A stretch of DNA of 43,503 nucleotides from positions 1-43,503 of the IMG/VR virus record IMGVR_UViG_3300020195_000054. One strand, 5' to 3'. Position 1 is the stretch's first letter, and each line of letters begins with the position of its first letter. Under the pieces are notes generated by a model. It saw nothing but the letters and a program-made list of their open reading frames with translations, had not been told where the DNA came from and ran no database searches. The position numbers were made by a program, and so were the translations under genes. This stretch comes from a virus. This document shows, piece after piece, positions 1,834-38,685 of the stretch.

Positions 1834-4071
1834 ATGACCACCACACCCTTCTTTGCCCTCAAGAATCTAGCGACGATTGCAACGGAGCCTTGCGTCCCTT
1901 GGGAGGTCTCTCTGCCCTTCCCAGAGAAGTGCATCAAGGACAAGAAAGCAAGGTCGGCTTGGATGATGAATCCAGAGACCCACTACAACGCCTTCAATTC
2001 ATTCGAGGGATTGAACTCCAACCAGCGGATAAAAGGCTCTCCCGGAGAGGATGGCAACCCCCCTCGGTATCATCACGCGCTGATTATTGACATTGACTAC
2101 CCTCTCTCGGAGGTAGAAGTCCGGGCGGCAATTGACCGGATGAAAATCCAGCCGAACTGGCTGGAGCGGTCTTTGTCTGACAACTGGCGAATGGTCTGGA
2201 TATTTGAGAGGCCGGTAATCATGGCCTCCTACGAGTTCGCCGTTCTATGGCTCTCGACGATTGAGCAAATCATCCAGTTTCGACAGGTCGCGGGAGTTGA
2301 CGAAGGCGCTCTCCTCGCCCCGGAGAGATACTACACCAACGGGTGCAAGTGGGAACATCTCCACGACGCGCCAGTTCCATACGCGCTGCTTCTCGGGCTG
2401 CTTCAAGAGGTTTCCGCAAAATACAATTGGGCCGGGCCGGAGATGGGCGTCGTGGTGCCGCTGGACATCGTCAAGGGGGAGCTTCAAAAGAAGTATCCCC
2501 GCTTTGTCGAATGGGATGGAGAATTCATCCTCGACGCGCAGGGTCCGACCTTCTGGGTGGACGGCAGCGCGTCCCCAAAATCCGCCATCGTCCGCTCAAC
2601 GGGAATCCAAACCTTCTCCGACCACGCCACGAAGCCATTCTATAACTGGTCAGAGCTAATATCGCATGACTTCGTCAAGACTTACAAACTTGAGGAGATG
2701 GGCCGGGCAATCGACGGGGTATTCTACGACGGTCGAAGCTACATCCGGCAGAATGAGCAAAAGGAATGGCTCTGGGAAGACAAGGACGGACTGACGCTCC
2801 AACTTCGCGTTGCGCGAGGACTCTCAGACAGACGACCGAAGGGTCAGAACTTCACTCAGATTGATTCTGCTCTGGCGATGATTAAGAATACTGCGCTGAT
2901 TTCTTCAGCGGGTTCCTTTGCGGGATACAAGAAAGGTCTGATGACCTTCAATGGAAACAAGTATCTCAACATTCACAACCGGAACGCAATGATGCCCTCC
3001 TCTGAGATTCCGGTGTGGGGCATGGACGGGGGAAATATGCCGTTTCTCTCGCACCTGTTCAACCAATACTTCACAAGCTCCGACCAAGTTGACTTCTTCT
3101 TTTCGTGGCTCTCCCGATTTTACCGCTCAGTATATCAACGCGAGCCCCGCAGCGGTCAAGCAGTGTTTATCTTCGGCCCGCCAAATCGAGGAAAGACTTT
3201 TGTTTCGAGCGCAATTCTTGCACGGCTTGTGGGCGGCTCCGCTGAAGCCAAATCCTTTTTGATGGGTGAAGATAACTTCAATTCGGAATTGTTCGACTAC
3301 TGTCTGTGGACCATCGACGACGGCAGCGTCGGAAGCAGCCAACGGCTTATGACGCACTTCGCGGAGACCGTCAAACGCTGCACTGCGAACATGACATTCC
3401 GGTCCAATGAGAAGTTCCGCAAAGCCAGCTTAGTGCAGTGGCAGGGGCGGATATGTGTCACGGGCAATGTGGATGCGGAGAGCCTTCGGCAGATTCCGAA
3501 CATGGATATTTCCATGCGAGAAAAGGTGGGACTCCTTCGAGTTCGCGAGGTTCGCGACGACGGATTTTTCTTCCCAGAGACAGACGTTACCCAGAAAATT
3601 CTGGACCGGGAGTTACCGCTCTTCGCTCGGTTCCTGCTCAATTACGAAATCCCGGAGCACTGTCAATCGGGGGACTCACGCTACGGAGTGCGCGAGTATC
3701 ACGAGCCAACCCTGCTCATGGAGGCGAATCACTCCTCCAGTTCGGGCACCTTCGCCGAAATCATCGACGAATTCCAACGCGAATACTTCACCGTCCGCGA
3801 ACCCCACGCAACAGAATGGGTTGGCACCGCGCTTCAGTTGCACAAGACCATCTTAATGGATATGACTTTAACGGAGGCAATGCGCCCATACAGCGTTCAG
3901 GCCGTCTCCCGAATGTTGAGCAATCTCGCGGTGAAAAAGATTTTTGAAGTCACCGTTGAGGGGGACGAACACCGTCGCCTCTTCCGAATAAAGCGGGACT
4001 CCCGCTATCCCCTCCTCTCCCGTAGCAATCTCTCGGCACACAACCAATCCTCTAAATTCCAAACACAATGA
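1834..4071 (+). CDS. Primase-helicase (AEP-like primase plus SF3/D5-type helicase)
   Basis: A 745-residue protein expected to prime and unwind DNA at the phage fork. The N-terminal half looks like an archaeo-eukaryotic-type primase: residues 80-90 read HHALIIDIDYP, the hydrophobic-D-x-D metal motif, with a NWRMVWIFE strand downstream. The C-terminal half is an SF3 helicase ATPase. Walker A is GPPNRGKT at about 448-455, Walker B is LWTIDDG at about 491-497, and a sensor-like strand ICVTGNVD lies at about 540-547. The C-terminal 150 residues look like a winged-helix tail. It overlaps the sigma factor start by four bases (ATGA), indicating translational coupling in the polymerase-primase-sigma-resolvase operon. 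The helicase assignment is firm; the primase half rests mainly on one motif. Confidence 0.85.
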   Translation: MTTTPFFALKNLATIATEPCVPWEVSLPFPEKCIKDKKARSAWMMNPETHYNAFNSFEGLNSNQRIKGSPGEDGNPPRYHHALIIDIDYPLSEVEVRAAIDRMKIQPNWLERSLSDNWRMVWIFERPVIMASYEFAVLWLSTIEQIIQFRQVAGVDEGALLAPERYYTNGCKWEHLHDAPVPYALLLGLLQEVSAKYNWAGPEMGVVVPLDIVKGELQKKYPRFVEWDGEFILDAQGPTFWVDGSASPKSAIVRSTGIQTFSDHATKPFYNWSELISHDFVKTYKLEEMGRAIDGVFYDGRSYIRQNEQKEWLWEDKDGLTLQLRVARGLSDRRPKGQNFTQIDSALAMIKNTALISSAGSFAGYKKGLMTFNGNKYLNIHNRNAMMPSSEIPVWGMDGGNMPFLSHLFNQYFTSSDQVDFFFSWLSRFYRSVYQREPRSGQAVFIFGPPNRGKTFVSSAILARLVGGSAEAKSFLMGEDNFNSELFDYCLWTIDDGSVGSSQRLMTHFAETVKRCTANMTFRSNEKFRKASLVQWQGRICVTGNVDAESLRQIPNMDISMREKVGLLRVREVRDDGFFFPETDVTQKILDRELPLFARFLLNYEIPEHCQSGDSRYGVREYHEPTLLMEANHSSSSGTFAEIIDEFQREYFTVREPHATEWVGTALQLHKTILMDMTLTEAMRPYSVQAVSRMLSNLAVKKIFEVTVEGDEHRRLFRIKRDSRYPLLSRSNLSAHNQSSKFQTQ

Positions 4072-4718
4072 CCTCCTCCAATACAAGCTACTATCCGGTC
4101 GGAGCCGACCTACGATTCACGATGCTTTCCGCAGCCGACGAGACCCGCCTTTTCCGAGAGGCACGGGAGGGGAGCACCGCGTCCCGAGATTTCTTGATTC
4201 AGAATCATATGCTTTTCGCGGCGATGCACGCGCGTCGGCTCTCCAAGGGACGGCTCCCCGACGACGAAGTTTTGAGCGGGGCTAATCTGGCCCTGATGAA
4301 GGCGTTTGAAGGGTTCAAATATGAACGCGGAAATCGGTTTACTAGCTACCTGAAACCCTTCATCCAAGGGGAAATCTCGGCCCTGTGGCGCAAGTATTTT
4401 GAGGCTCTGAAGGAATCTCCCGGGGGACCGCTTCGGGAGATTGGACCCCCCGTTGAGCCCATCAACAACGACCCGCATGAGGAGGCTATCGAATGGGAGC
4501 ATTCCCGATTCCTGACCTCGCTCATTGCCGACTTCAAGGACGTTCTCAATCCACACGAGCAGGAGATAATCGACCGGCACTACCTGCGAGAGGAATCCTT
4601 TGCCGACATTGCACGGAGCCGGGGGGTAACCCGCGAGGCGATTCGGGCCTCGCACGCACGGGCGATTGTAAAGCTGAAGAAAGCCCTCAAGCGCCGGGGA
4701 ATCACCACCTTGCAATGA
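4068..4718 (+). CDS. Sigma-70-family RNA polymerase sigma factor
   Basis: A 216-residue phage-encoded sigma factor, predicted to redirect host RNA polymerase to phage promoters. Region 2 is recognisable at about residues 44-110: an NHMLFAAMHARRL helix, then DDEVLSGANLALMKAFEGF (core-binding 2.2 type) and FTSYLKPFIQGEISALWRKY (2.3/2.4, -10 recognition and melting). Region 4 at about 160-208 has NPHEQEIIDRHYL and a helix-turn-helix FADIARSRGVTREAIRASHARAI (two stretches read together), the -35 reader. Region 1.1 and most of region 3 are absent, as in small alternative sigmas. It overlaps both neighbours by four bases. No phage RNA polymerase is visible, so late transcription of the minus-strand block may depend on this protein; that link is inference. 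Confidence 0.9.
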   Translation: MTSSNTSYYPVGADLRFTMLSAADETRLFREAREGSTASRDFLIQNHMLFAAMHARRLSKGRLPDDEVLSGANLALMKAFEGFKYERGNRFTSYLKPFIQGEISALWRKYFEALKESPGGPLREIGPPVEPINNDPHEEAIEWEHSRFLTSLIADFKDVLNPHEQEIIDRHYLREESFADIARSRGVTREAIRASHARAIVKLKKALKRRGITTLQ

Positions 4719-7961: not shown

Positions 7962-8093
7962 TTAAGAGGTGGGCGTTTCAACAACTTCGTCAACTTCCGG
8001 TTCGGGCGGCAGATACTTCTGGGAGCCTTCCACGAGGGTTTTCATCTCCTCTGGGGAGAGGTCGAAATCTTCAATTTTCAGCGGTTTGTTCAT
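7962..8093 (-). CDS. Small acidic protein (43 aa)
   Basis: A 43-residue reading frame (begins MNKPLKIEDFDLSPEEMKTL) starts with an ATG that overlaps the stop of the giant gene as ATGA (8090-8093) and ends two bases before the next start. It is rich in Glu and Asp with a proline-rich C-terminus (PPEPEVDEVVETPTS). The precise coupling to both neighbours is the main reason for calling it a gene. No family is recognised. Confidence 0.6.
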   Translation of the reverse strand: MNKPLKIEDFDLSPEEMKTLVEGSQKYLPPEPEVDEVVETPTS

Positions 8094-11000
8094 TTTTTCT
8101 TAGGCTTAACATCGTCCACGGAGAGCCCAAAGTCAAGCTCTTGAAGCCCCGACGTATCCACCTTTTTCAGGGTGCCCTCGGGAGTCCTTACGGTCTTAGC
8201 GAGCAGGCTGTTGAAATCGGTCTTTCCGCTACTGGTCTTCGACAAGGTCCAACCCTGCTTTTCCCAGAAGTCCTTCTCGGCAAACCAGAGAACCGCCTGC
8301 AAGGCGTCGGGTTTGATGGCGAGAGCTTCAGCGGCCTTTCGGAAGGCTTTCTGTCCCGTGAAAAAGTCCACGTCGGTCACCCCGGTCTCATTGCCCGGCT
8401 GAATGCGCCATCGCTTCTCATTCCCGACATTTGCTAAACGGTGAAGCATCCGCATTGCCCATATGTCAATGGTCGCTTCAAAAGTTGTGCCCGAGAGGTT
8501 GCCGGTAAAATTGGGGGTCTTGGGTCCACCGACTTCAGCAGCCCATGAGCCGTCCAGAACCTTCAGCACTGGGCGGGAATTCATCCCGAACTTTTTTCCG
8601 TTGCTTTGAAGCGGAGTAAGCTTCTTTTCGGTAATCCACCAGTCGAGATAAGCTGTGCGGGTTGGGTTCTCCCCACCCGGAAAATCACCGACGGCACCTT
8701 TCTCGAAGTTCCGCTTGCCTTCGCGATATGTGTCAAGGATGCCATCATAAGCCCCCGACTTGAACTGGTTGTAGGCTTCGAGGGCGAAACCAAAGTTCAT
8801 GTTAACTGCCGTTCGGGCCGAGGTCGCCCCCAGTAATTCTGCAAAAAGCTTGGCGTCTGGGCCGAGGAGTTTTTTCAGCCGAGTGCGAGCGGTGGAATAC
8901 CACTTCTCACCAGCTTTGATTTCGGGATTCTTGACTGCCTTCTCGTAGGTTTTGACAAGCCGCTCAGAGAGTGCGTCGGTGAAGGCTTCTTCCCGTGGGC
9001 CTTCTCCGCGCACTCCCTTGGCGGCTTCCTTGGCGAGCGGGGAATCCGAAAGGGCGTAATCTTTGCGGATTGGCACCGGCTTGCCATCCTGCAACCGATA
9101 GGAGCCATCTCCCTCCTTGGCGAACTCCAATGGCAACGCCTCCGGGTAGTTCTTACTCTCGGCAACGCGATTACGGATAGCCAATTGCTGCTCTGCGCCG
9201 ACGCCCCCCTTCTCGTTAAATCCGGGGAGAGTCTGTTCGTCGGAGGGTAAGAAGTCCCCGCCAAAAGCGCGGGCGCGTTGAATGGCGCTTGGTCCCTTTT
9301 TACCAGCTTGAGAGGTGGTAGGACGCAATCCTTGCAGCATCGCAAGAGCGTCCGGGCCGGGAGTCTCACTGTCAAAAAGTCGTGCTGTCCCGGAGTCAAC
9401 TACCTGCCCGGCGTCATCCAACAGGGACACCCGCAGTTTGTCGATACTGTCAACTGTCGCGAGAACCCGGTCTTCAATGGCTTTCTTGAGGTCGCCCTTG
9501 TAGAATTTCTGATTGAGTTCAATAGCGGTGGCTCCGTTGTAATCCCGGACGCGGACGAAACCCTTGTTGATTGCTGAGAGACGGTCATTCAGAGTCGAGG
9601 CCGATTCAAAAGATGTTCCGAACTGAGCATTGAGCTTCTCGCTATGTCGGGCTAGAAAATCTTGGTGGAAGGCTTCATCCAATGGGACGAATTCTCCATC
9701 CGGCAGAATCCATCCAGTTGGCTTGGGAGAGGTGGGCTTCTGTTCTTCTGAGACGGCGTATTTGCTGAAATCAGTGAGGGCGTCTTCCTTCGCCTGCCGT
9801 GCAGCGTTCTCCTTGGTCAACTTGGGGTAGTCAATGAGCCCGTCGCGAGTCAGGGGTCGGCCCCGTTCGTCACGTTTGCCACCCTTGCCTTTAGGCTTGA
9901 CATCTCCCGGTAGAAAGTTTCGGTTCTCGCGGAACTCAACGGATTCCAGAGCCCCTAGGGATTGAATCTGACCCTTGCCCTTGTCGAGTTGCTTGATGTC
10001 TTCAGCGCGAATCAGTGCGTCGGCGCGGTTGAGAAACTCGCCTGCGTTGGTGATGAAGCCGTCCTCAAACTCTCCGCGATAATATGGCTTCCTTCTGAGA
10101 GCATTTCCAATGGCGATGGCGTGTATCTGACCCTCGACAACCGTCCCGTCGTCGAGACGAACCGCCGTCGCGCGGATGGCGCGGGGCTTTACGTCCTCGG
10201 GGACGATTCCAGTTTTACCCTCCGGGAGGAAGCTTCGCTCAACCGTCCGAGGAAGGGCGGTGGTTGAAAATTCCGTGGAGGTATCTCCCAGATTGGAGAG
10301 GAACTTGTCGATGGCAGGGAGGCTGTCCGAGGACACGTATCCCTTGAAATTTCCACTGTCCCAATACTGAACTACATGCTTGAAGTTGTCCTTCAGGATG
10401 GACTCATATCCGTCCAGAGTGGCCATGTTGTCAACCATGCCGACAGCCTTCGTTTCAGACTTAGGCTGCTGAAATCCGACAACGGTATCCTTCGCCTTCA
10501 GCTCTTCTGGGGAGAAATACACCTTCTTGTAGCGAGTGTCCTTGACCTGCTCATTCTGTTTCCAGACCTCGGGACTTGTCCGAAGTTTTTCGTCGGACAA
10601 AAAGATGCCATCCGGTTTCAGTTGCCCCTTCACGGACTTGACCTGCTCTGCCCGGTCGGGAGAGATGAATTGAAAGACCATCGACTCGTTGACTACGTCG
10701 AATTTATTCTTGTCTTTGAATTCCGGGATAACCTTACCCCCGTCTTCAAAGCTCGCTCCAAGAGCGGCCTCTTGGTAGGAAGAACCCGGAACGGAACTCT
10801 TCTCTCGAAAGAAAGCGGCCATATCAGGATTCGGGTCAACCACCACGGTTTCAATCTTTCCACCCGACTCACTGGTGATAGCTTTATTCCACGACCCCTC
10901 ACTTCCGCCAACGTCCAGAACTCGGGCTCCTTCAGGATAGGTCTTGACTAGGGCGTCCCCCTTCTGGAACTGAGTTTCCCGATACGAAGGGATAGATTTC

Positions 11001-14000
11001 GCGATATGCTCGTCGAAGTTTCCCGAGTGTTTCGCCTGCGCTTCCGCGAATCCTTTGACGGGCGTAATGTCTTTGAGAGGCACCCACGGAACTTCTGACT
11101 TTCCGAACTCTCCTTTGGTCACCGAGGAAAAGAAGTCCTTGAAGGCGAGTCCGGTCAAAGCCCGCTCGTCTCCGGGCAAAAAAGACCGCTCCCGTTTGAA
11201 CTGGTCGGACTCCAGCAAACCCTCTGCCCGCAGTGTCCCTTTCTCGGGAGTGCCCTTGAGCTGCTTGATTTTCTCCGCATGAGCCAGTGCGTCTGCCCGA
11301 TTCAGGAATTTGCCGGACTTGGTGGTGAAACCGTCTTCAATGAATCCGGGGACAGGGTTGCCTGCAAGCACGCTATCCAAAACCTCTGTCAGTGAACGGA
11401 CGCCCTCTGGCAACGTCTGCTTGGTTTCGCCACGGCTGGAGGCGTCCACGAAGTTCATCAACGCTTCGCCGTGCCAAGCGCCTGTATAGATTTCACCGTT
11501 CTCCGTTCGGATAGCCGCTTGCGCAATCGGGTCGAGGTCTTTGGCGATTTCTTCGGCGGGTAGAAAAGAGCGACCGAGTTCGCCCTTGTCGCCGGGATTG
11601 GGGGTAGGGGTAGCTTCTGTTGCACCTTTCGCAAACGGGGGCTTTCCATCCGGGAAGGCTCTGCGCCAACCGACCGTCGGGTTCGCCGCACTTCCAGTGT
11701 CGGTAGCCGCACCAATCGCCTCATTGAAAAACTGTGCGCGAGACGCATACGGCATGGCGTTGTCGAGGTCGCCAGACACCATTTTCTCACGAAACTTGGC
11801 ACTCGCCTCCGCAGCGAAATCCGTCAACTTGATTACGTCCTCGGGACTCATCAACTTGAGTCCAAGGTCGTAGGCTTCGATGGTCAGTCCTCGCGGACCA
11901 TAGACCATTTTATCGTTGACCGGGGCGTCAATAATCTTGCGACCGAACTCTTCGAGAGTGGTTCCGTCCGGCAGGAAAAATCGCGCACCCTCTCCAGCGG
12001 GCTTGTTCAGCCGTCCGTTGCGCTGGTCGAACTCGACTTCCCTTCGGGTCTTCAGCCGTTCTGCTTCAGTCGCCGGGATGCCGGACTTTTTCTTCTCTTC
12101 AAGCCGTCGGGTTACCTCAGCCGCAAGAGTGTCGCCGGGCAAAAATCCGCCGCGAATTGTGTCCGTGACGGGCGCTTTGAAATTGATGTCCGGGCGGGGA
12201 TTGACTTTCGCGATGTCTTCGACCGCGATGCGTTCGGTAACCTCAATCAGTTCGCGCACCTTCACCCCGCGAGCGGCGAGTTCGTTGCGAAGCGGGTTTG
12301 TCTCCTTAATGGTGCGAGGCTCAAAGCCCTTGAACTTCTGCTTGGCCCCGACATTCTCGGGCTTGATGACCGTCGGTGTCAAGGGCTGCTTGGCGTTGAC
12401 CTCGGCCAAAACCTGTCCCTTTACGTTTCCGGGAGTCTGGCCCTTGGTGACACGCGCGGTCTCTGGCGGATTCAACCCTTGAATGAGGTTGGCAAAATTC
12501 ATCGCCGCTTCAGAGAGCGGGACGGGCGTATAGTTCGGGTTCTCGGCTGGGATTGAGACTCCGATGTCTTCTGTGGGGCGGACAAGCTTCTGTCCGTCGC
12601 CACGGTATCCGTTGGACTGATTTTCCGCGTAGGTCTTGAGGTCCGCGACGGATTGCTTCCATCCGGCGTCTGTGAGTTTACCCCCCTCCATTGGGTAGGG
12701 AAGCAATGCTTCGGCTCCTTTGGATGCCGTATCAGAGACCACACGCGAAATGTTTGAGATGACCTTGTCGAGCGACATCGCAATCAAGGTCGGCTTGCCG
12801 CCCTGCGTAGTGAATCGCACCGGGACAAAAGTCTTCTGGTGTTCGTTGACGATGTCCGCTGGAGCATTCTTGCGGTTCTCGATTTGAAGCTCCTGTAGAG
12901 CTTCGTATCCCTGCGCTTGCGTGCCGCGCCGGGAGGTCCGGCCTTCGGGGGCTCCGGGGCCGCGCTCGCTGGCAATACCACGATGCTCGATTTCGAGGAC
13001 CGGGTTTCCTTGCTCTTGCATGGACTGGGCGATGGTATCAACCGTCGCACGAGTCTCGGGATTGCTCTCGGTTGCCTTCTGGGCTTCTGCGATGCCAGTC
13101 TCTTCCGCGCGGGCCGAAAAGGCGTCTTGCTCAGACCGCTCGACCCGGATATTCTTCGCGCCGGTCACTTCAGCCGGTTTCGCAGCGGGTGTGGGGGTCG
13201 CCGCCGGTTTGGGTAGAATGGCGGCAGGCGTAATTGGCGCGGGCGCGGCAGGCGCGGGAGACCTCGGAGTCGGAAAAGGAATCGGGGACACCGGGGCCGT
13301 CGGAACTGTTGGGGCAGCTACCGGCTGAGTCGGCGGGCCTTGAAGTGGAGCGCCCTGTCGAGACAAGACTTCCTTTGCCGCGTTGCGCAAGAGACCCTGC
13401 ACACGAAATGATGGAGTAGCCCCGAGGTTAGGAGTGACCCGTCCACTGGTCAAGTCGAGCCCGAGAGCTTCGCCCGCATTGACCGCCGTCTGCCCAAGCT
13501 TCTGCAAGAAGGTGCGGGGAGCCTTGAGGTTGTCGAAGGAACTATTGCCGAAGAGCTGGCTGAAATTCTCCGCGATAATTTCGTCGGCGGCTCTCTGGTT
13601 GCCAATTTCCTCACCCAACTTGGTGAAGTAATCCGGCTCCCCAATACGACGGGCATACTCGGCTTTGAACGTCGCAATCTGCTCCGGTGAGTAGCTATTG
13701 AAAACAGACTCTCGGAGAGCCTTCTGCTCAAGGGGACCGAGCAACGACTGAAAAAGATGTCCGGCATCGTGCGGCAATCCCTTTGCAGAGGCCCGCAGGA
13801 ACACAACCCGACGGGGATTTCCTTGTGCATCGGTGAGAGTGCCCGAGAACTCCGCATGAGTCCTCGCGTAGAGGGCAACTTGCGTCTGCTGGTCAAGGGT
13901 AAGCTGGGTTCCGGGGGGAGAGTCCTTCAGGAACTCGTCGGTCAATCGCTGTTTATACGCGGCATCATCCTGCACGTAGATTTCTCCACCAGCCTCGCGA

Positions 14001-15682
14001 ACAGCTTCGCGAAAGGTGTTGATGGCATTCTGCTCGCGTGGGGGTAGAGATTGGATTGCCGCCTCGTGACTCACGTCGAGTGCGGCGTCCGTCCCATAGG
14101 CCGGGGAGTTCGTCGCATCAAAAGGGATGTTCGCCGGGTCGAGGTAATTCTTCGCGATGCTTTTAATCGCGACTTTTCGGGTCGCGCCCACTCCCCCTGC
14201 AATACCGACAAGGGCGATACCGCCACCGAGGAGAGCGCCAGCGGTTTTACTGTCATCGGATGCCAGCGCGAGGAGTGCAGCCGCAGCCGCGCCTCCCGTA
14301 GCGCCTTTGGCGACACCCCCAGCAATCTGTCCGACGGGCGTTGTTGGAAGCTTGGTGAGGGTCTCTATAATTGCCGTCTTCGGCCCGGTAAATCCGGGGG
14401 CGAGCTGACGGCCACTGTCCGCGAGCTGTCCGCCCTTCTTGGCAATTTCAGCCGAAATTTCAACGGCGACCCGCTTTGCGGTCTCACCAGCGGCAGCTCC
14501 GACGGCGGCACCCGTCAAGGTGCCCGTTTGAACCCCGCCGATGATTGTCCCGACTGACTTGCCGGGCACCCGTTCAGCAACATACTTCGCGGCGGTAGCG
14601 CCTTTCTGGACACCCCGTCCAGTGAGTTCGATTGATTTCGCTGCGGCAGTCTTCAGTCCGTTGAGGACAGCTTCACCGCCCGCGCGAGTCGCAGCCGTGG
14701 CGAGAACCTTTCCAGCGACTCCGACCACCTTGAAAACACCGGCAGTTCCCACCAGTGTAACCGGGTCCACAAGGGAGAGACGTTCAATTGCCTCTTTGTC
14801 CAACGTGATTCCATTTTTCTGCAACGTCTCCGCGTCGAGTCCCGTCAACTTGGAAGCATCGCCAGAGCCTTCCGACAACGCCTTCATCGTCTTGGAAAAC
14901 TCCGCATCAATAAGCAAGTCCCCCAATAGTTCGTCGTCGGTCTGCTTTTCAGGAGCCTTGCCAAAAAGCTTGCGAGTTCCCTGTTGTGCGAGCTGTCCGA
15001 GTCCCGTGACAGCGGTCTCGGTTCCGGCGAGAACTTCGCTCGCGGCCTTGAGCTGGGCTTTACCTTGTTCAGCTTCAATCCCGCGCTGCGTCTCCGCATC
15101 GGTGCCGGTCACGAATCCAAAAAATCTGTTGGCTGCTGGCTGAATCCCGAGTTCAATGGCGCGTGCGCCAAGGTCAACAACGCCCCCCACCGTTTTCTTG
15201 ACCAAGCCGTAGGCTTCGGTGATTGCGGCCTTCACTACCTTGCCTGCTTCGAGCCCCCTAATCCGGCGAGCCCGGTAAATGTTGAGCAGCTTCTTAGATT
15301 TTGCCGCATCGGTGTTTACCGACGGGTTGCCTGCGATGTATTCGGCGGGACTGAACGAGTCGTCCTTTATAAGCGTGCCCTCGTCTTCGAGGTCGAGACG
15401 GTCGGCTTCTTGGAGTCCGGCGAAAACGTCATCTCCCGCGACTTCTTTGAGACCCGAAAAAGCATCGGGGGCCGTTGGCTGCACCTCTTCGAGCCCCGCG
15501 AACGGGTCGGTAGCGGCGGTTGGAGTCTGCGCCTTGAGTTTGGCAGCGGCGTTCGGGTCTTGCGCCTTGAGATTCAGCGACGGGTCCGACAACACCACCG
15601 GGCCGGGTTGAGCGGACTTGGAGCGGGCAATATCAATAGTCGGCTCTTCGGGAGGGAGGATGCCGCCGGGAAGAAGTGGCAT
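8090..15682 (-). CDS. Giant polyvalent virion-type protein (2530 aa): zincin-like, methyltransferase and repeated modules
   Basis: A 2530-residue protein, likely packaged and ejected with the DNA. Residues 59-93 hold three DxFxGLxEV-type repeats. Residues about 110-510 are helical with Gly/Ala-rich hydrophobic stretches near 375-410 and 465-505 that could cross a membrane. Near 637 a GLPHDAGHLFQ motif, followed by ADEIIAENFSQLF, resembles a zincin peptidase in which the catalytic Glu of HExxH is Asp. A Pro/Ala linker spans about 771-838. A class I methyltransferase core lies near 1580-1720 (VLDVGGSEGSW, VVVDPNP, FDVVNESMVFQF). Two homologous modules end in EDGFxTxxGxFLNRADAL (near 1446 and 1873). 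Seven FLP-type motifs punctuate residues 1178-2141. The C-terminal 350 residues form an unassigned domain (EKWYSTARTRL, IDIWAMRML). Such mosaics match the published concept of phage polyvalent proteins. Individual activities are inferred. Confidence 0.82.
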   Translation of the reverse strand: MPLLPGGILPPEEPTIDIARSKSAQPGPVVLSDPSLNLKAQDPNAAAKLKAQTPTAATDPFAGLEEVQPTAPDAFSGLKEVAGDDVFAGLQEADRLDLEDEGTLIKDDSFSPAEYIAGNPSVNTDAAKSKKLLNIYRARRIRGLEAGKVVKAAITEAYGLVKKTVGGVVDLGARAIELGIQPAANRFFGFVTGTDAETQRGIEAEQGKAQLKAASEVLAGTETAVTGLGQLAQQGTRKLFGKAPEKQTDDELLGDLLIDAEFSKTMKALSEGSGDASKLTGLDAETLQKNGITLDKEAIERLSLVDPVTLVGTAGVFKVVGVAGKVLATAATRAGGEAVLNGLKTAAAKSIELTGRGVQKGATAAKYVAERVPGKSVGTIIGGVQTGTLTGAAVGAAAGETAKRVAVEISAEIAKKGGQLADSGRQLAPGFTGPKTAIIETLTKLPTTPVGQIAGGVAKGATGGAAAAALLALASDDSKTAGALLGGGIALVGIAGGVGATRKVAIKSIAKNYLDPANIPFDATNSPAYGTDAALDVSHEAAIQSLPPREQNAINTFREAVREAGGEIYVQDDAAYKQRLTDEFLKDSPPGTQLTLDQQTQVALYARTHAEFSGTLTDAQGNPRRVVFLRASAKGLPHDAGHLFQSLLGPLEQKALRESVFNSYSPEQIATFKAEYARRIGEPDYFTKLGEEIGNQRAADEIIAENFSQLFGNSSFDNLKAPRTFLQKLGQTAVNAGEALGLDLTSGRVTPNLGATPSFRVQGLLRNAAKEVLSRQGAPLQGPPTQPVAAPTVPTAPVSPIPFPTPRSPAPAAPAPITPAAILPKPAATPTPAAKPAEVTGAKNIRVERSEQDAFSARAEETGIAEAQKATESNPETRATVDTIAQSMQEQGNPVLEIEHRGIASERGPGAPEGRTSRRGTQAQGYEALQELQIENRKNAPADIVNEHQKTFVPVRFTTQGGKPTLIAMSLDKVISNISRVVSDTASKGAEALLPYPMEGGKLTDAGWKQSVADLKTYAENQSNGYRGDGQKLVRPTEDIGVSIPAENPNYTPVPLSEAAMNFANLIQGLNPPETARVTKGQTPGNVKGQVLAEVNAKQPLTPTVIKPENVGAKQKFKGFEPRTIKETNPLRNELAARGVKVRELIEVTERIAVEDIAKVNPRPDINFKAPVTDTIRGGFLPGDTLAAEVTRRLEEKKKSGIPATEAERLKTRREVEFDQRNGRLNKPAGEGARFFLPDGTTLEEFGRKIIDAPVNDKMVYGPRGLTIEAYDLGLKLMSPEDVIKLTDFAAEASAKFREKMVSGDLDNAMPYASRAQFFNEAIGAATDTGSAANPTVGWRRAFPDGKPPFAKGATEATPTPNPGDKGELGRSFLPAEEIAKDLDPIAQAAIRTENGEIYTGAWHGEALMNFVDASSRGETKQTLPEGVRSLTEVLDSVLAGNPVPGFIEDGFTTKSGKFLNRADALAHAEKIKQLKGTPEKGTLRAEGLLESDQFKRERSFLPGDERALTGLAFKDFFSSVTKGEFGKSEVPWVPLKDITPVKGFAEAQAKHSGNFDEHIAKSIPSYRETQFQKGDALVKTYPEGARVLDVGGSEGSWNKAITSESGGKIETVVVDPNPDMAAFFREKSSVPGSSYQEAALGASFEDGGKVIPEFKDKNKFDVVNESMVFQFISPDRAEQVKSVKGQLKPDGIFLSDEKLRTSPEVWKQNEQVKDTRYKKVYFSPEELKAKDTVVGFQQPKSETKAVGMVDNMATLDGYESILKDNFKHVVQYWDSGNFKGYVSSDSLPAIDKFLSNLGDTSTEFSTTALPRTVERSFLPEGKTGIVPEDVKPRAIRATAVRLDDGTVVEGQIHAIAIGNALRRKPYYRGEFEDGFITNAGEFLNRADALIRAEDIKQLDKGKGQIQSLGALESVEFRENRNFLPGDVKPKGKGGKRDERGRPLTRDGLIDYPKLTKENAARQAKEDALTDFSKYAVSEEQKPTSPKPTGWILPDGEFVPLDEAFHQDFLARHSEKLNAQFGTSFESASTLNDRLSAINKGFVRVRDYNGATAIELNQKFYKGDLKKAIEDRVLATVDSIDKLRVSLLDDAGQVVDSGTARLFDSETPGPDALAMLQGLRPTTSQAGKKGPSAIQRARAFGGDFLPSDEQTLPGFNEKGGVGAEQQLAIRNRVAESKNYPEALPLEFAKEGDGSYRLQDGKPVPIRKDYALSDSPLAKEAAKGVRGEGPREEAFTDALSERLVKTYEKAVKNPEIKAGEKWYSTARTRLKKLLGPDAKLFAELLGATSARTAVNMNFGFALEAYNQFKSGAYDGILDTYREGKRNFEKGAVGDFPGGENPTRTAYLDWWITEKKLTPLQSNGKKFGMNSRPVLKVLDGSWAAEVGGPKTPNFTGNLSGTTFEATIDIWAMRMLHRLANVGNEKRWRIQPGNETGVTDVDFFTGQKAFRKAAEALAIKPDALQAVLWFAEKDFWEKQGWTLSKTSSGKTDFNSLLAKTVRTPEGTLKKVDTSGLQELDFGLSVDDVKPKKK

Positions 15683-15686
15683 AGAA

Positions 15687-16874
15687 TTATTGGACTGGCG
15701 ATACTACGTATTTGGGGTTTCGGAATACCCGACCATCTGGGGATTTGATAAATTGCGCGGTTGCCGGAGCTTCCGCCGGACTGTTCACCGGGACGGGCTG
15801 CGACGGGGCTGCGGGGGACGCCGCCGGGGCAGCACTTCCCGTTCGGTCAGGGGCAGAGGGTCCAATAGTTTCGGTCATCTCCTCTTCAGCCAATTCCCGG
15901 AGCGCCTGCTTAGATGCCACCAAGACTCTACTGTCGCCGTCTTGCGGGAAATACTGCATATCGGCGTCCTTGTATTCCTTCATCGCAATAGCCGCGCCGG
16001 ACTCCTTACGCAGATTCGCTGCAATCCAGTTGTTCTTCGAGGCGGTGTAAATCTGCAACTGCTCCCCTTGAAGTCGATTCGGCAAATACTTCCGGGCGGT
16101 GGTCGTCAAGGCGGTTGCATCGAACCCGGCTTCCTCGTTCTTCTTCAGGATGTCTTGGTGGAAACGCAGACGAGCTGAATATCGTGCGGCACCCGCCTGT
16201 TGTTCGGTGAGTGACGCAGCTTGTGACGAGAGCACTGTCTCACCGAGGGGTCTCCCCGTAACCTTGTCAGTGCGAACCAAGACCTCCTCTTCCTGCTTCG
16301 TTTGGGGATTGACCCGCTTGATTTTGTTCTCCGAGATATTCGCAACGCCAGCCTTGGACGCTTCGAGCTTCCTGCGCCGGTCCACTTCGACTTCAAGGTC
16401 TTCGGCCCCGCTTCCGTAATCAATTTTCCCGCCTTCGCGCGGGAGGGGCCGGCCGGGGAAAAATTGACGCCAAGCATCGGTGAACGCTTTCGGGTCTCCC
16501 CCTTGCTGGAAGTCCTCCAGAGATTTCTTGGCGTTTCCAACTAAGAGTTCTGCGTCGGCCACGGTGGCTTCGGCGACTTGAGGTTGGACCTGTGCTTGCA
16601 AATCCACCGCGCGGTTTTTGAGGTCAAGCTCTTTCGATACAACTTCCCGTTGCTTCGGGCGGACGATGTTCGTGTCGGCGAGTGCCTGCCGACGCTGCGC
16701 GTTTTCCAACGGCTTGTCGGCAGAACGCTTGGTGAGGTCGTCAACGGTGATGAAGCCGTTACGAAAAGACGACATGAGGTCACCAACACCGAGAGTCACG
16801 GAAAACTCCGCGACTTGAGAGGCGCTGTTTACGGGTGCGAGGGCTTGGACGTTTGAATCGGCAATTCCGGGCAT
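15687..16874 (-). CDS. Ejection-type internal virion protein
   Basis: A 395-residue, mostly helical protein. Near residues 283-330 it has LRKESGAAIAMKEY followed by YFPQDGDS and a K-x-x-x-R-x-x-A helix. I recall this pattern from phage proteins of the DNA-ejection region; the recollection is of the family pattern, not of a specific hit. Long charged helices fill residues 50-130 and 165-270, with a Pro/Ala-rich stretch at 340-370. It lies between the T7-core-like membrane protein and the 2530-residue protein, separated by four bases from each. This matches the arrangement of internal core proteins in podoviruses. There is no signal peptide. Confidence 0.65.
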   Translation of the reverse strand: MPGIADSNVQALAPVNSASQVAEFSVTLGVGDLMSSFRNGFITVDDLTKRSADKPLENAQRRQALADTNIVRPKQREVVSKELDLKNRAVDLQAQVQPQVAEATVADAELLVGNAKKSLEDFQQGGDPKAFTDAWRQFFPGRPLPREGGKIDYGSGAEDLEVEVDRRRKLEASKAGVANISENKIKRVNPQTKQEEEVLVRTDKVTGRPLGETVLSSQAASLTEQQAGAARYSARLRFHQDILKKNEEAGFDATALTTTARKYLPNRLQGEQLQIYTASKNNWIAANLRKESGAAIAMKEYKDADMQYFPQDGDSRVLVASKQALRELAEEEMTETIGPSAPDRTGSAAPAASPAAPSQPVPVNSPAEAPATAQFIKSPDGRVFRNPKYVVSPVQ

Positions 16875-16878
16875 ATTA

Positions 16879-17865
16879 TCAAGAGTAGGCGCTGCGAATG
16901 TTTTTCACTGCTCCAGCGGTGGTCGTCCTTCCGGTTTCATCACCACCAGTGTAAGCACCAAGAGCCGACGAGGCAAACGAAGCCCCGGCTTGGATGTAGG
17001 CAGCATTCGCTTCGCCTGCATTAAGAGCTTTCTGTGCGCGTATATCGCCCTGCTTACCCTTAATCTTCAGCAACGTGTTGCCGCGATTCTGTTGGATGGC
17101 CGCAGCCTCTCGACCAGTCAGACCAGACTCGGGAAGTGTCGAATCACCAATTCCAAAAGATACGGCGGCATCCGCCTTGCGGGCGTCTTCAGCGGCTTTG
17201 ACCGTCGGAAAAATGCTGCCAAGAATGTTCGCGCGAGACACTGTCAAATCTGAAGCTGCTCCGGCGAGAGAAATCGCCTGCTGTTGTCGGCCCTGCTTCA
17301 ACTGTTCCCCAGCGATACCAAGCGCACGGGTGATGCTGCCCCCGATGGTCTTGGCTTCAGGACTAAATCCGGCTTGACCGCCTTCGGTCACACCCGCTCG
17401 AATGAGGTCCGCTTGGAACTCTGGCGGAAGGGTTGCTCCCGAGTCAAGCTCGCTTTGAGCGCGACCAATGATGGAGTCCTTGAGAGCTTCGATACGGGGG
17501 TCCGTGGCGAGATTCTCCTCGACGAGCTTGTTCGCGATTTGTGTCGAACCGAGAGACTCATTAGGACGAGCGGTCTCACTAAGAAGCCGCTCCTTGCCAA
17601 GTTGACGAACCTTCGCCAGTTCTGGGTCAATCTCTTCTTGTAGAGCAATTCGATTCTGTGCGCGTAGTCGGTCGGCATCCGTCGCCGCTTGGTTGAGCCG
17701 GTCAAATGAAAGCTCCTCGGACAGAATTTTCTTCTGCCCCTTCAAAGCCTTCTGTTGTGCGCCTGCGGCCTGGTCCCCGGCCTTCTTTTTCGCGTAGGCG
17801 CTACCTGCCGCACCTGCGGCAACGACAATGGCTCCGGCGATAAGAATTGCTGTTGCGATTGCCAT
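16879..17865 (-). CDS. Internal core / DNA-transfer protein with N-terminal membrane helix
   Basis: A 328-residue protein. Residues 3-24 (IATAILIAGAIVVAAGAAGSAY) form a hydrophobic, Ala/Gly-rich helix, followed directly by a Lys-rich patch. The rest is helical and Gln/Ala-rich, with a second small-residue stretch near the C-terminus (AYIQAGASFASSALGAY). This layout recalls podoviral internal proteins such as T7 gp14, which form the outer-membrane part of the ejection channel. It sits four bases downstream of the GNAT gene and four upstream of the next virion gene. The function is inferred from topology and gene order. Confidence 0.65.
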   Translation of the reverse strand: MAIATAILIAGAIVVAAGAAGSAYAKKKAGDQAAGAQQKALKGQKKILSEELSFDRLNQAATDADRLRAQNRIALQEEIDPELAKVRQLGKERLLSETARPNESLGSTQIANKLVEENLATDPRIEALKDSIIGRAQSELDSGATLPPEFQADLIRAGVTEGGQAGFSPEAKTIGGSITRALGIAGEQLKQGRQQQAISLAGAASDLTVSRANILGSIFPTVKAAEDARKADAAVSFGIGDSTLPESGLTGREAAAIQQNRGNTLLKIKGKQGDIRAQKALNAGEANAAYIQAGASFASSALGAYTGGDETGRTTTAGAVKNIRSAYS

Positions 17866-19421: not shown

Positions 19422-20432
19422 TTATGGAACTGTTACGGGTCCGGCGATAGGAGACGCCAAGGTTTCACCAAAGCTAGGCTCGACGCCAGTCACCTTGTAA
19501 AAGAAGGTTCCAGACGGAGGACTGTCAATGAAAGAATTGCCGGTCACATTTGCAGTTATCTGTGTAAACGGGCCGGAGGTACTCGTCGCACGATAGACCA
19601 CGTAGCTAAAGATATACGGCTGAGTCGTCCATCTCAACCGAACTTGGTCAACGCCGCCCCCCGGAAGAGAGACAGCATTAGTGTCCAACGTGACCGCACC
19701 GTTACGGGCCAGCAAGCGGCCCTCAACAGACGCCCCCGCGTTTGCTCCGATGGAAGTCAAGGCCAAAATTGAGCCCTTGAACTCGGCAGTTGTGTCGAGC
19801 GTTGCCGAACTGCCTACTTGCCAAGTGATATGGTCAGCCGTAGCCCCTCCCGTCAGGAGGATTTTCCGTCCCGGCCCCATGATAAATGTTGACGCAATCT
19901 GAAAAAGGAAAGTCGCTGCTGCATTGCCGCCCGCGTCGAGCGTCAGGTCGCCCGAAGTAATCTCAAGGGAGGACGTTGACTTGTAAACCCCCGGAGTGAG
20001 CGTCTGCCCACCGATATTTCCAGCGACTACCGTCGCACCAGTAACCCCCGCTGCGGCGTTGTATTCGGCGGTCAAGTCGAGTTGCGCTTGCGCGGCTTGG
20101 GCATCCGTTATATGCTGCGTCCCGAGCACGGTTCCCGGAGGGAAGCCCGTCACGGAAGAGCCGGGGCTTAATCCGAGGTCACCATCAATTACCGTGCCGC
20201 CGGTATTGGTAACTGTCGTGCCTGCAAGAATTGCAAACCCAGTTCCCAACAGTTCCAACACCAGCGAAATAGGACCGGGCAACCGGGAGACCGGGAGAAT
20301 TCCAAGCGTAGCTGAATCGCCAGTTCCCGAGCCGGACGAGATGGGAATCACCCGGCAGACGCCCGGAGAGCGATAGTCAATTCGGAGTGCCCGACGAGTA
20401 ATGGCCGCGAGAGTTTGGAAAGGCTTGCTCAT
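19422..20432 (-). CDS. DUF3494 (ice-binding-like) virion protein with fibronectin-III-like C-terminus
   Basis: A 336-residue protein with an almost textbook DUF3494 domain at about residues 66-255. It reads FAILAGTTVTNTGGTVIDGDLGL, then SSVTGFPPGTV, DLTAEYNAAAG, GQTLTPGVYKSTSSL, SGDLTLDAGG, FLFQIASTF, ITWQVGSSATL, FKGSILALTSI and VEGRLLARNGAVTLD. In bacteria and algae this beta-solenoid family includes many ice-binding proteins, normally secreted. Here there is no signal peptide. Residues 1-60 are unique and residues 262-335 look like a fibronectin type III domain (VRLRWTT...YVVYRATSTSGPF). It overlaps the nozzle-like gene by four bases and precedes a fibre gene, so it is most likely a virion adhesin or decoration. 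Actual ice binding is unproven. Confidence 0.88.
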   Translation of the reverse strand: MSKPFQTLAAITRRALRIDYRSPGVCRVIPISSGSGTGDSATLGILPVSRLPGPISLVLELLGTGFAILAGTTVTNTGGTVIDGDLGLSPGSSVTGFPPGTVLGTQHITDAQAAQAQLDLTAEYNAAAGVTGATVVAGNIGGQTLTPGVYKSTSSLEITSGDLTLDAGGNAAATFLFQIASTFIMGPGRKILLTGGATADHITWQVGSSATLDTTAEFKGSILALTSIGANAGASVEGRLLARNGAVTLDTNAVSLPGGGVDQVRLRWTTQPYIFSYVVYRATSTSGPFTQITANVTGNSFIDSPPSGTFFYKVTGVEPSFGETLASPIAGPVTVP

Positions 20433-29543: not shown

Positions 29544-30269
29544 TCAATGGACAAATCGCTCGCGAATCCGATTCAATACCGAATTGTCTTTGATTCCGTG
29601 GAGGAATACAACGCCTTGGTCGATAAGCGCGTCAACGTCTGCGGGCTTCATCGTCGCTTGCTGCCAATAGCTCACCATTTGGGGACAATTCTCCCAACCC
29701 TCCCGAGAAAACTGTTTCGTCAAGAAGAAATCCCACCCATAAATTGGAGGGCACCCGCCAATTTTACGACTGACGAGATTCAGAAAAGGTAAGTCCCCCG
29801 AGAAGAGGCAGTTGCCGTTAATGTGGACTCCCGGATATTGCTGCATAGCCCCGTGAACTTTCACGGGACGTTTACGGTTGACCTTTCTCCATGAATCAAG
29901 GAGAGTCTTGTGCCAATAGGGGCCGAGTGGACTTGCATCGGCCTCGAAGGTTAGCACCGCGTCATACTCGGGCATTATTTTGGCCTCGGTGTATGAGCAA
30001 ATGTGGTCCATCGTGCCGAACCACAAATCATTGCACCCCGAAGGCCATCCGACCCCCCTCCGATGACGGTTGATGTAGTGCCACATCTTAAACTTTGAGG
30101 ATACATAGTCAATCGTCTTGAGGTCATGCTGACAATCGAAACGGCTTACGAAAAGAAAATCCACGTCAGGATTATGGCGGGGTTCGAGGTCGGCAATCAG
30201 TCGGGCGACTTCCATCGCTTGCGCCCGGTCCCCCTGCCAATACTGAAGCGCCAAAAGTAGTTTGCTCAT
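29544..30269 (-). CDS. Glycosyltransferase-like protein (GT-A type)
   Basis: A 241-residue protein. The N-terminal strand LLLALQYWQGDRAQAMEVARLI and the acidic motif YDAVLTFEADASPLGP (near residues 103-118), in the place of the DxD motif, suggest a GT-A nucleotide-sugar fold. A conserved-looking HGAMQQYPGVHINGNCLF and a terminal DQGVVFLHGIKDN follow. It overlaps the next gene upstream by four bases and precedes the capsid gene. It may glycosylate a virion protein or a host surface polymer. The donor and acceptor are unknown. Confidence 0.6.
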   Translation of the reverse strand: MSKLLLALQYWQGDRAQAMEVARLIADLEPRHNPDVDFLFVSRFDCQHDLKTIDYVSSKFKMWHYINRHRRGVGWPSGCNDLWFGTMDHICSYTEAKIMPEYDAVLTFEADASPLGPYWHKTLLDSWRKVNRKRPVKVHGAMQQYPGVHINGNCLFSGDLPFLNLVSRKIGGCPPIYGWDFFLTKQFSREGWENCPQMVSYWQQATMKPADVDALIDQGVVFLHGIKDNSVLNRIRERFVH

Positions 30270-31288
30270 CGCTTGTTAGGTAAAAAGACATGCTCGCCGA
30301 TGTGGCCGCAAACGAGACCCATATCCACAAAAGGTTGGTGGCCACTTTGCGCCGCGCGGAGACAGAACGAGACATCCTCCCCCTTTCCCAAACTCGAATG
30401 AGCCCTTGACAACGCCTGCCCGCGAGCAATTAACTCTCGGGCCTTGGCAATACGGACAGGCTCAGAAATTGTGGGGTCGTCGAGAACCTCTAGGGCGTTC
30501 TGGGTAGATTCCTTCAAGTCGTGTTCAGAGGGGGTAAACCAATGCCCGTAATCCCCGTCTTTATTCCTCGCGAGGTGCGGAAAGTGGGTCTCAATGTCGA
30601 GGAACACCGAGCGATGAATCAGAAGACATCCAGTCCCCACCCATCGTGTGGGCTTGATTAAATCGTGGGGGGCTTTCCTCGCATACGCCTCTTCCTCCTT
30701 GTTATGATATGCCTCGGCATACACCGGCTTACCGTGCTCCCACCGGCCTTGATATAGTGCGCCAACCAAGGTTTTACCATGTGACAGGAGGCGATTAACG
30801 GTGTGGAGTCCGGCAAAAGACTCAGAAAGAGTCGAGCGGCAAAAAGAATTGTAGAGTGGAGCATTGCCAAAAGGGAAAACCATGTCGTCGTCAAGCGTGA
30901 GTGCCCACTCGATTTTCGATTTCAAGAATCGGTCGGCCAGCTTGTTACGGGAGTGTGCAATCATTGCATCGCCAAAATCAAGCATCACGGCCATCTTCGT
31001 TCGGTCATACAGGTTGAGGAGAGAGAACTCTGTCCTCGGGTTGGTCGTCTTGTAGGAGGGTAAAAGAATGCAGACCTGACGGCCCTCCCACATTGCAGAC
31101 TCAGTCTCCTTGACTCCGGGCACCGCATCCACCGAGAAAACCCTCTCGACAGCCGCGAGCGAGACCGGCTTGGACCCCGCGTCCCACTGCCGGGCCAGTT
31201 GCTCTGACACTTCAAAAAACTCCGCTGCCTCCCCAACGGTAGGGAAGCTGCGGAGTTTTTGCAGAACCAATTCGCGCAGGTAGGACAT
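30266..31288 (-). CDS. GT2-like glycosyltransferase with N-terminal HTH-like segment
   Basis: A 340-residue protein. Residues 12-40 (LRSFPTVGEAAEFFEVSEQ then LARQWDAGSK) look like a small helix-turn-helix. Residues 70-240 form a GT2-like domain with VCILLPSYKTTN at the donor site, AMIAHSRNKLADRFL, and WALTLDDDMVFP, whose DDD (residues 133-135) fits the metal-binding DxD. A later WVGTGCLLIHRSVF and a terminal GKGEDVSFCLRAAQSGH (ED acceptor-site motif) complete the family pattern. It starts as TAATG at the end of the scaffold-like gene. An HTH fused to a GT is found in several phages, where its role is unknown. Confidence 0.75.
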   Translation of the reverse strand: MSYLRELVLQKLRSFPTVGEAAEFFEVSEQLARQWDAGSKPVSLAAVERVFSVDAVPGVKETESAMWEGRQVCILLPSYKTTNPRTEFSLLNLYDRTKMAVMLDFGDAMIAHSRNKLADRFLKSKIEWALTLDDDMVFPFGNAPLYNSFCRSTLSESFAGLHTVNRLLSHGKTLVGALYQGRWEHGKPVYAEAYHNKEEEAYARKAPHDLIKPTRWVGTGCLLIHRSVFLDIETHFPHLARNKDGDYGHWFTPSEHDLKESTQNALEVLDDPTISEPVRIAKARELIARGQALSRAHSSLGKGEDVSFCLRAAQSGHQPFVDMGLVCGHIGEHVFLPNKR

Positions 31289-37707: not shown

Positions 37708-37849
37708 TGGTCACGTAGGTCTGCCCGAGCAGCCTCATGTAGCCCCTTGGATACTTCTTGCGATTGATGAGGTAGTCCGCGCCGACCGCCACTGGTGCGA
37801 CGAGAGCCGTAAGGACGAATACCGGAAAGGTCAGATATTTATTTTTCAT
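37673..37849 (-). CDS. Small membrane protein (58 aa) overlapping terL
   Basis: A 58-residue frame beginning MKNKYLTFPVFVLTALVAPV. It starts as ATGA on the stop of the upstream glycosyltransferase-like gene and ends 35 bases inside terL. Residues 7-24 are hydrophobic, followed by NRKKYPRGYMR and a second, weaker hydrophobic stretch (TYVTIGLCII). The coupling and hydrophobic layout favour a real gene. Its function is unknown. Confidence 0.55.
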   Translation of the reverse strand: MKNKYLTFPVFVLTALVAPVAVGADYLINRKKYPRGYMRLLGQTYVTIGLCIIENARR

Positions 37850-38685
37850 TGGGACAGGATGTGTCGGATTACTTCGCGAGGGGTTTTGCCGAAAGTGTTT
37901 TCGCCGTTACCGTAGGTGAAGCGAACATCGGCGACGGCGTCCAAGCCGCCGTGGCTCCAAAACTGAATCATGGGGTTGGGCAGCTTCGCCAGTTCACCTG
38001 CGTAGTCGGCGTCAAGGTTCACCCACTCATAGGAATCGTGCATGAACCTGTCGGCAAATGCGCCCATGATGTTCGACTCGGAAAAGTTGGCTGCATCACT
38101 GCGGTTGTCCTTCTGCGCGTGGGCACCAACCCGGTAAACGTATTCTTCAAACCGCATCTTGTTAAGGTTGCGAATGTGCCCGCGCACGCGAGGAAACAAC
38201 TCGCGAGGATATATCAACGGAAGCCTGCGCATGTATTCATACTCAGGTTTCCATCCGAGAGCATCCTCGGTGCCCCGCTGCCACGGCTCCATCGGCAAGC
38301 GTGCCCTGAAAAGTTCCGCGTAAGAGTTCACCAGCATGACCGGCTTACCATTACGAAAAAAAGGTTCGGGAGTAAAGATGTCCGAGACGATACAGTCCGA
38401 GCCGACCAGCCAGACGTAGTCCGCGCGGGGGCACATGATGTCGCCTTCCATCATGGAGATTTGTGCGCGGAGGTTGCCGAGGCCGGGGGGACCGTCCTTG
38501 ATGTGGACCGTTGCTCCGGGATAGTTCAGTGCGCAAATCTCCGTGGCCTCAGCGGCTTCCCCGGAGGAGACTGAGATGACCGGCGGAAGAAACCCGCGCG
38601 ACATCTTGCTGAGTGTTCGGAGACAGTATTGCAGCCAGACAAAATCTTTGACGTAGCTGGCAATTAGAATTTGATGTGTGCTCAT
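37846..38685 (-). CDS. Glycosyltransferase-like protein, first type of the terL-side cluster
   Basis: A 279-residue protein. The start (QILIASYVKDFVWLQYCLRTL) and the acidic motif ADYVWLVGSDCIVSDIFTPEP near residues 87-107, in DxD position, suggest a GT-A fold close to the DUF6492-type group. The C-terminal part (SESNIMGAFADRFMHDSY; FWSHGGLDAVADVRF) shares the SHGGLDA pattern with the two paralogues upstream. It overlaps both neighbours by ATGA. Target sugar and acceptor are unknown. Confidence 0.65.
   Translation of the reverse strand: MSTHQILIASYVKDFVWLQYCLRTLSKMSRGFLPPVISVSSGEAAEATEICALNYPGATVHIKDGPPGLGNLRAQISMMEGDIMCPRADYVWLVGSDCIVSDIFTPEPFFRNGKPVMLVNSYAELFRARLPMEPWQRGTEDALGWKPEYEYMRRLPLIYPRELFPRVRGHIRNLNKMRFEEYVYRVGAHAQKDNRSDAANFSESNIMGAFADRFMHDSYEWVNLDADYAGELAKLPNPMIQFWSHGGLDAVADVRFTYGNGENTFGKTPREVIRHILSQ

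What the first reader, a model, noticed from the sequence alone, without database searches (positions are those of the whole stretch)
8090..15682. 2530-residue polyvalent protein with methyltransferase and zincin-like domains
A single reading frame joins N-terminal membrane-type helices, a peptidase-like HDAGH motif with a downstream ADE...AEN pattern, a class I methyltransferase core, a duplicated EDGFxTxxGxFLNRADAL module and an unassigned C-terminal domain. It is the last large gene of the ejection-protein group, so the whole set may enter the host with the DNA as early effectors. The combination of domains may be undescribed.
Basis: partly seen in the sequence, partly recalled or inferred. 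Interest (0 to 1): 0.72.

Follow-up and report, generated by a model that had tools for sequence, protein, structure and literature searches.

The report
Phage giant effector with marked junctions
A short-tailed virus of bacteria makes one very large protein that strings several enzyme-like domains together, and a three-letter tag, Phe-Leu-Pro in this virus and a different tag in its relatives, sits at nearly every joint between swappable domains, as if marking where the chain is cut or held.

Summary
The reading frame is real: 2530 codons on the minus strand. It is conserved in synteny, next to the ejection-type genes, in a family of uncultured ~72-kb podovirus-like phages. It belongs with the 'polyvalent proteins'.

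The methyltransferase is confirmed and sharpened. It is CmoA-like (profile E=1e-7 to H. influenzae YecO) but lacks CmoA's Cx-SAM-binding Arg199. The zincin is supported by family conservation (HxxH invariant in 38 sequences, downstream E..A), but this clade has HDAGH where most relatives have HExxH, and no fold search was significant. The 'unassigned' C-terminus is DUF7178, an all-helical domain in at least 310 viral loci. Relatives put ART-PolyVal, GNAT or other methyltransferases in the same slots.

In relatives the same junctions read F-S-V/P, F-L-T or F-M-P. The tag is uniform within a protein (concordance 0.82 against 0.36 shuffled) and lies at homology breakpoints (8.8 alignment ends against 2.2-2.6). 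Codons vary, so it is held at protein level. It may be a processing or docking site; no reader was found, and the zincin does not track the dialect. I call this a new variant of a known kind.

The parts
8090..15682 (-). 2530-aa giant polyvalent-type protein
   Evidence: collinear relatives
15398..15508 (-). N-terminal tail with three copies of a short acidic motif (DPFAGLEEV, DAFSGLKEV, DVFAGLQEA), residues 59-95; relatives carry about three copies of their own version
14183..15682 (-). N-terminal region (residues 1-500), Gly/Ala-rich with two weakly hydrophobic segments
   Evidence: conserved at 23-54% mean identity
13448..14107 (-). zincin-like domain, residues 526-745; HDAGH at 638-642 and AE at 704-705; HExxH in most other clades of the family
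12149..13153 (-). conserved middle domain of unknown function, residues 844-1178, among the best conserved parts across the family
12137..12145 (-). FLP junction motif 1 (residue 1180); reads FSV, FLT or FMP at the same place in other clades
11969..11977 (-). FLP junction motif 2 (residue 1236)
11573..11968 (-). small cassette, residues 1239-1370, shared between dialects
11558..11566 (-). FLP junction motif 3 (residue 1373)
11189..11557 (-). module 1 (EDGFTTKSGKFLNRADAL), residues 1376-1498
11174..11182 (-). FLP junction motif 4 (residue 1501)
10253..11146 (-). CmoA-like class I methyltransferase cassette, residues 1513-1810; position equivalent to CmoA Arg199 is Asp1732
10223..10231 (-). FLP junction motif 5 (residue 1818)
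9923..10222 (-). module 2 (EDGFITNAGEFLNRADAL), residues 1821-1920; phrog_839 match at 1872-1901
9908..9916 (-). FLP junction motif 6 (residue 1923)
9263..9856 (-). alpha/beta cassette of unknown function, residues 1943-2140, mostly confident in the AlphaFold2 model
9245..9253 (-). FLP junction motif 7 (residue 2144), in a low-confidence linker of the model (pLDDT below 50)
8168..9091 (-). C-terminal DUF7178 domain, residues 2198-2505, all-helical, most blocks above pLDDT 90
15687..17865 (-). two upstream ejection-type genes (395 and 328 aa); genes in this position are kept upstream of the giant gene in the relatives

Best explanation
The gene encodes a virion-borne, ejected multi-effector ('polyvalent') protein. 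A conserved chassis (N-terminal tail with a triplicated motif, hydrophobic region, zincin-like domain, middle domain, C-terminal DUF7178) carries an exchangeable central set of cassettes, which in this phage includes a CmoA-like SAM enzyme between two copies of a small module. Each cassette is bounded by a short exposed tag, F-L-P here. The tag is the recognition site of something that handles every junction in the same way. Most likely this is proteolytic processing that frees the cassettes, in the virion or after ejection; docking that lines up the cassettes for packaging and ejection is a close alternative. Shown by sequence: the frame, the domains, the cassette exchange, the tags at junctions, one dialect per protein. 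Inferred: presence in the virion, ejection, cleavage or docking, and the enzyme activities.
For: Virion-operon position and conserved synteny. Domain matches. ART-PolyVal, GNAT and other methyltransferases in the slots of relatives. FLP seen 7 times, 0.55 expected by composition. Codons at the seven copies vary synonymously. Motif sites have 8.8 homology-breakpoint ends within 15 residues, against 2.2-2.6 at control positions; 0 of 5000 simulations reach the total. FLP sites align to FLP in 182 cases within the FLP clade, and to FSP 43, FSV 24, FLT 21 and FMP 7 in the other clades, where FLP is absent from the listed partners. Within-protein dialect concordance 0.82 against 0.36. Homologous cassettes occur in FLP, FS, FLT and FMP proteins. 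Junctions 1 and 7 fall at or in segments of pLDDT below 50.
Against: No reader of the tag was identified. The zincin of this clade has Asp instead of Glu in HExxH. Three FLP-dialect proteins (L016, L019, L106) carry a zincin closer to the FS clade's (47, 36 and 36% against 28, 22 and 23%), so the zincin does not set the dialect. No S78, S49 or ClpP protease was found in the phage records searched. Relatedness of the proteins inflates the permutation statistics. Some members mix dialects (L030, L103, L133). There are no proteomics.
Confidence: 0.6

Rival explanations
1. The tag is a docking motif, not a cleavage site. Like the triplicated N-terminal motif, it binds a partner in the phage (ejection proteins, portal or inner core) that holds the cassettes in order for packaging and threading. 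The dialect follows that partner.
For: Two kinds of repeated short motif in one protein, both uniform within a phage and different between phages. No dedicated processing protease found. The zincin does not track the dialect.
Against: The protein just upstream does not clearly track the dialect: L141 speaks FLP, but its upstream protein scores best against the FS clade. The tag is a bare tripeptide with little flanking preference.
Confidence: 0.35
2. The junction tags are recombination scars: shared DNA words at the joints help cassettes to recombine, and the peptide itself does nothing.
For: Tags sit at homology breakpoints and cassettes are exchanged.
Against: The seven FLP copies in the window use six different 9-base words, and codons vary in relatives as well. 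The switch to FSV, FLT or FMP affects most junctions of a protein while the upstream domain ends stay homologous.
Confidence: 0.08
3. The zincin-like domain is a dead structural relic and the protein is mainly an internal structural or ejection-channel protein; the methyltransferase and DUF7178 cassettes are passengers.
For: HDAGH lacks the catalytic Glu; the middle and C-terminal domains are the most conserved; PF18818 gives no match.
Against: Both His are invariant and the third-ligand Glu is present in 87% of 38 sequences, and HDAGH itself is kept across about ten members of the clade. Relatives carry ART-PolyVal and GNAT enzymes.
Confidence: 0.2

Closest known systems
Polyvalent proteins (Iyer et al. 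2017, PMC5512222)
   Same: Giant multidomain phage protein near virion genes, zincin-like domain, modifying enzymes, exchangeable domains, predicted co-delivery with DNA; relatives carry ART-PolyVal.
   Different: CmoA-like SAM domain rather than the EcoKI/TaqI-like adenine methyltransferase described there; DUF7178; one repeated junction tag per protein, which the passages of that paper read here do not mention (searched for 'linker' and 'motif').
Maribacter phage Panino WZE63588.1 (1829 aa, annotated tRNA methyltransferase)
   Same: The same CmoA-like domain in a large protein of a virion-gene operon (41% aligned identity).
   Different: No FLP tags, no DUF7178, no shared N-terminus.
CmoA / YecO (PMC3663124)
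   Same: Full-length profile match to PDB 1im8 and 4gek; SAM-binding Asp and the DEK region kept.
   Different: The Arg199 that binds the carboxymethyl group is Asp here and K, S, G or A in relatives, so Cx-SAM synthesis is unlikely.
Phage P1 Dar proteins (PMC12810830, PMC5512222)
   Same: Head-packaged proteins ejected with DNA; DarA is trimmed by a prohead protease.
   Different: P1 uses a separate prohead protease Pro; none of the three protease families searched was found here.
MARTX toxins (analogy only, PMC3153235)
   Same: Modular effectors separated by disordered junctions; there the CPD cleaves after Leu at interdomain boundaries.
   Different: Unrelated protein, different protease class, bacterial toxin against eukaryotes; cleavage not shown here.

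Membership tests
Polyvalent proteins | several domains of disparate activity in one polypeptide | tested here: met
   CmoA-like enzyme, zincin-like domain, DUF7178; ART-PolyVal and GNAT in collinear relatives
Polyvalent proteins | encoded beside virion structural genes | tested here: met
   follows ejection-type and tail genes; synteny kept
Polyvalent proteins | a Pfam polyvalent domain in this very protein (supporting, not defining: many members are recognised by architecture) | tested here: not met
   none in the window protein; ART-PolyVal only in relatives
Polyvalent proteins | delivered into the host with DNA | not testable with these tools
   needs virion or host proteomics
Zincin-like metallopeptidase | HExxH | tested here: not met
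   HDAGH in this clade; HExxH in the other clades
Zincin-like metallopeptidase | both His and a downstream ligand Glu conserved | tested here: met
   His 100%, Glu701 87% of 38 sequences
Zincin-like metallopeptidase | zincin fold | tested here: inconclusive
   helix and strand order fits; Foldseek not significant; hhalign to N4 E=0.0024 but probability 12%; PF18818 no match
CmoA (Cx-SAM synthase) | full-length sequence similarity to CmoA | tested here: met
   E=1.4e-7 to 1im8 and 8.4e-6 to 4gek
CmoA (Cx-SAM synthase) | Arg199 | tested here: not met
   aligned residue is Asp1732; K, S, G or A in relatives (role of Arg199)
DUF7178 (PF23802) | score above Pfam gathering cut-off | tested here: met
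   43.1 bits against 27
HhH-GPD DNA glycosylase | HhH-GPD profile match for the C-terminal domain | tested here: not met
   PF00730 no match at E<=10 in nine records; the 8-oxoguanine glycosylase Tga-AGOG is only a weak Foldseek hit, E=1.2

The most novel reading that the evidence does not exclude
Every joint between exchangeable effector cassettes carries a phage-specific three-residue address tag read by a single co-evolving factor, so that this family of ejected effectors is cut or assembled by a tag code, and cassettes take on the local tag when they move between phages.
Probability: 0.4. Interest if true: 0.75.

Novelty: new variant of a known kind. Interest (0 to 1): 0.55.

Why it matters
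How giant ejected phage proteins are processed or threaded into cells is largely open. A repeated tag that marks domain joints gives exact, testable predictions of cut or contact sites, offers a way to segment such proteins into domains from sequence alone, and shows that effector cassettes are swapped under a constraint acting on the whole protein. It also adds a CmoA-like SAM enzyme that has probably lost Cx-SAM binding to the domains seen in these proteins.

Tried and rejected
The idea that the zincin sets the tag dialect was rejected: L016, L019 and L106 have FS-type zincins with FLP tags. The idea that the adjacent upstream protein sets it is not supported. Prohead or other proteases S78, S49 and ClpP were sought in 12 phage records: none. 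FLP enrichment in other window proteins: none. DNA-level repeat explanation: disfavoured by codon variation. HhH-GPD glycosylase for DUF7178: PF00730 no match, only a weak Foldseek hint. Foldseek of the zincin and middle model against PDB and viral models: nothing significant; both models held two domains and could not be searched domain by domain. PDB profile searches for the C-terminus and for zincin plus middle gave no convincing relative. A universal tag in all polyvalent proteins: not seen in Panino, Mx1 or Tunturi_5; only a hint (FSR three times) in F116p60. A generic methyltransferase reading was replaced by CmoA-like after the PDB profile search. No paper on DUF7178 was found.

Full report
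Observation. The frame at 8090-15682 is open on the minus strand for 2530 codons and ends at the stop at 8090-8092. The window is a whole IMG/VR virus record of 43.5 kb. Terminase (phrog_2) and, judged by size and gene order, portal, scaffold, capsid and tail-tube genes run towards the giant gene, which follows a 328- and a 395-residue gene. Genes in these positions are kept upstream of the giant gene in relatives.

Family. C-terminal and zincin/middle alignments found collinear full-length relatives, many in ~72-kb contigs (L015-L031, L094-L140), and one MAG contig (L141). No cultured phage in the collection has a close terminase (best 30% over 26% of the query). The C-terminal domain alone occurs in at least 310 viral loci.

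Domains. Residues 2235-2468 match DUF7178. The AlphaFold2 model of 1935-2530 is mostly confident (mean pLDDT 85.7), but Foldseek gives no significant PDB neighbour. Residues 1513-1810 match CmoA-family structures (E=1.4e-7 and 8.4e-6). In E. coli CmoA, Arg199 holds the carboxymethyl group (PMC3663124); the aligned residue is Asp1732 here and K, S, G or A in relatives, so a plain SAM-dependent transferase is more likely than a Cx-SAM synthase. The target is unknown. Phage-encoded true CmoA feeding DNA hypermodification is known (PMC12783734) and is not what this looks like.

Zincin. In 38 non-redundant members both His of HxxH are invariant and Glu701 is 87% conserved. Most clades have HExxH; the window's clade has HDAGH or HDSGH. 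The predicted strand and helix order fits a minimal zincin. Fold searches were not significant and the Pfam polyvalent zincin model does not match. I hold zincin homology as probable and activity in this clade as doubtful.

Cassettes. Relatives fill the region between the middle domain and DUF7178 with ART-PolyVal, GNAT, Phage_L5_gp82-like or other methyltransferase domains. The 'EDGF' module is duplicated around the methyltransferase.

Junction tags. FLP occurs 7 times in the window protein; shuffled sequences average 0.55 with a maximum of 4 in 2000 shuffles. The copies lie at residues 1180, 1236, 1373, 1501, 1818, 1923 and 2144, at the cassette boundaries. In the window protein and relatives with at least three dominant-dialect sites (27 proteins), motif positions have 8.8 local-alignment ends within 15 residues, against 2.2-2.6 at control positions (total 1281 against 381 +/- 47, 0 of 5000). 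Where FLP sites align to FLP-clade proteins the partner is FLP 182 times; in the other clades it is FSP 43, FSV 24, FLT 21 and FMP 7, and FLP is not among the listed partners. Examples: VTDxIRGG-FLP against STDITRAG-FSV; DEFSRGRS-FLP against DEFNRGKS-FSP. Over 132 junction sites in 28 proteins, dialect concordance within a protein is 0.82, against 0.36 shuffled (maximum 0.47 of 5000). Homologous cassettes occur under different dialects. The tree of the middle domain needs about seven label changes, so the number of independent switches is small, and shared ancestry must temper these statistics. Codons vary, so the tag is held at protein level. Other window proteins are not enriched. More distant DUF7178-bearing giants use FMP, YLPE or AMPD. 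Junctions 1 and 7 fall at or in low-confidence, presumably disordered, segments.

N-terminal motif. Nearly every member starts with about three copies of a short motif, uniform within a protein and different between phages (DPFAGLEE, DIYAGLQ, DPWASFP, DPYAGA and others). This is a second phage-specific code, plausibly a packaging tag.

Mechanism. I favour an ejected polyvalent effector whose cassettes are bounded by recognised tags. Cleavage and docking are not separable here. Against self-cleavage by the zincin: Asp for Glu in this clade, and three members with an FS-type zincin but FLP tags. Against a conventional prohead protease: no S78, S49 or ClpP in the phage records searched. The reader of the tag is unknown.

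Literature. Polyvalent proteins and their proposed zincin processing are described in PMC5512222. The word 'linker' does not occur in that text and no repeated junction motif appears in the passages read; other searches found none. Subscription papers were not searchable. MARTX toxins, cut after Leu at disordered interdomain boundaries (PMC3153235), are a working analogy only.

Noticed in passing
window 19425-20432 (-): Tail-region protein with a strong Pfam Ice_binding (PF11999) match, E=1.6e-58; an ice-binding-like adhesin domain in a phage tail operon.
   Followed up: no
window 15398-15508 (-), and N-termini of L015-L031: About three copies of a short acidic motif at the N-terminus, uniform within a phage and different between phages.
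   Followed up: partly
window 37846-40258 (-): Three tandem genes of similar length and sequence character that look like paralogous glycosyltransferases; two more candidate glycosyltransferases at 29544-31288 sit between capsid and scaffold genes. Pfam gave no match for the latter two.
   Followed up: no
window 41412-42134 (-): Serine recombinase (Resolvase, E=1e-24), possibly lysogeny or fibre switching.
   Followed up: no
window 4068-4718 (+): Protein that reads like a sigma-70-family RNA polymerase sigma factor, encoded by the phage; not tested with a profile.
   Followed up: no
L141: A giant protein 66% identical over zincin and middle domains lies on a contig binned as Candidatus Peribacteraceae; possible phage of that host or a mis-binned contig.
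   Followed up: no
L042, L055, L060, L068, L071: More distant DUF7178-bearing giants use MPD or MPE tags (such as QA-MPD, RF-MPE, RY-MPE), further dialects of the junction motif.
   Followed up: partly
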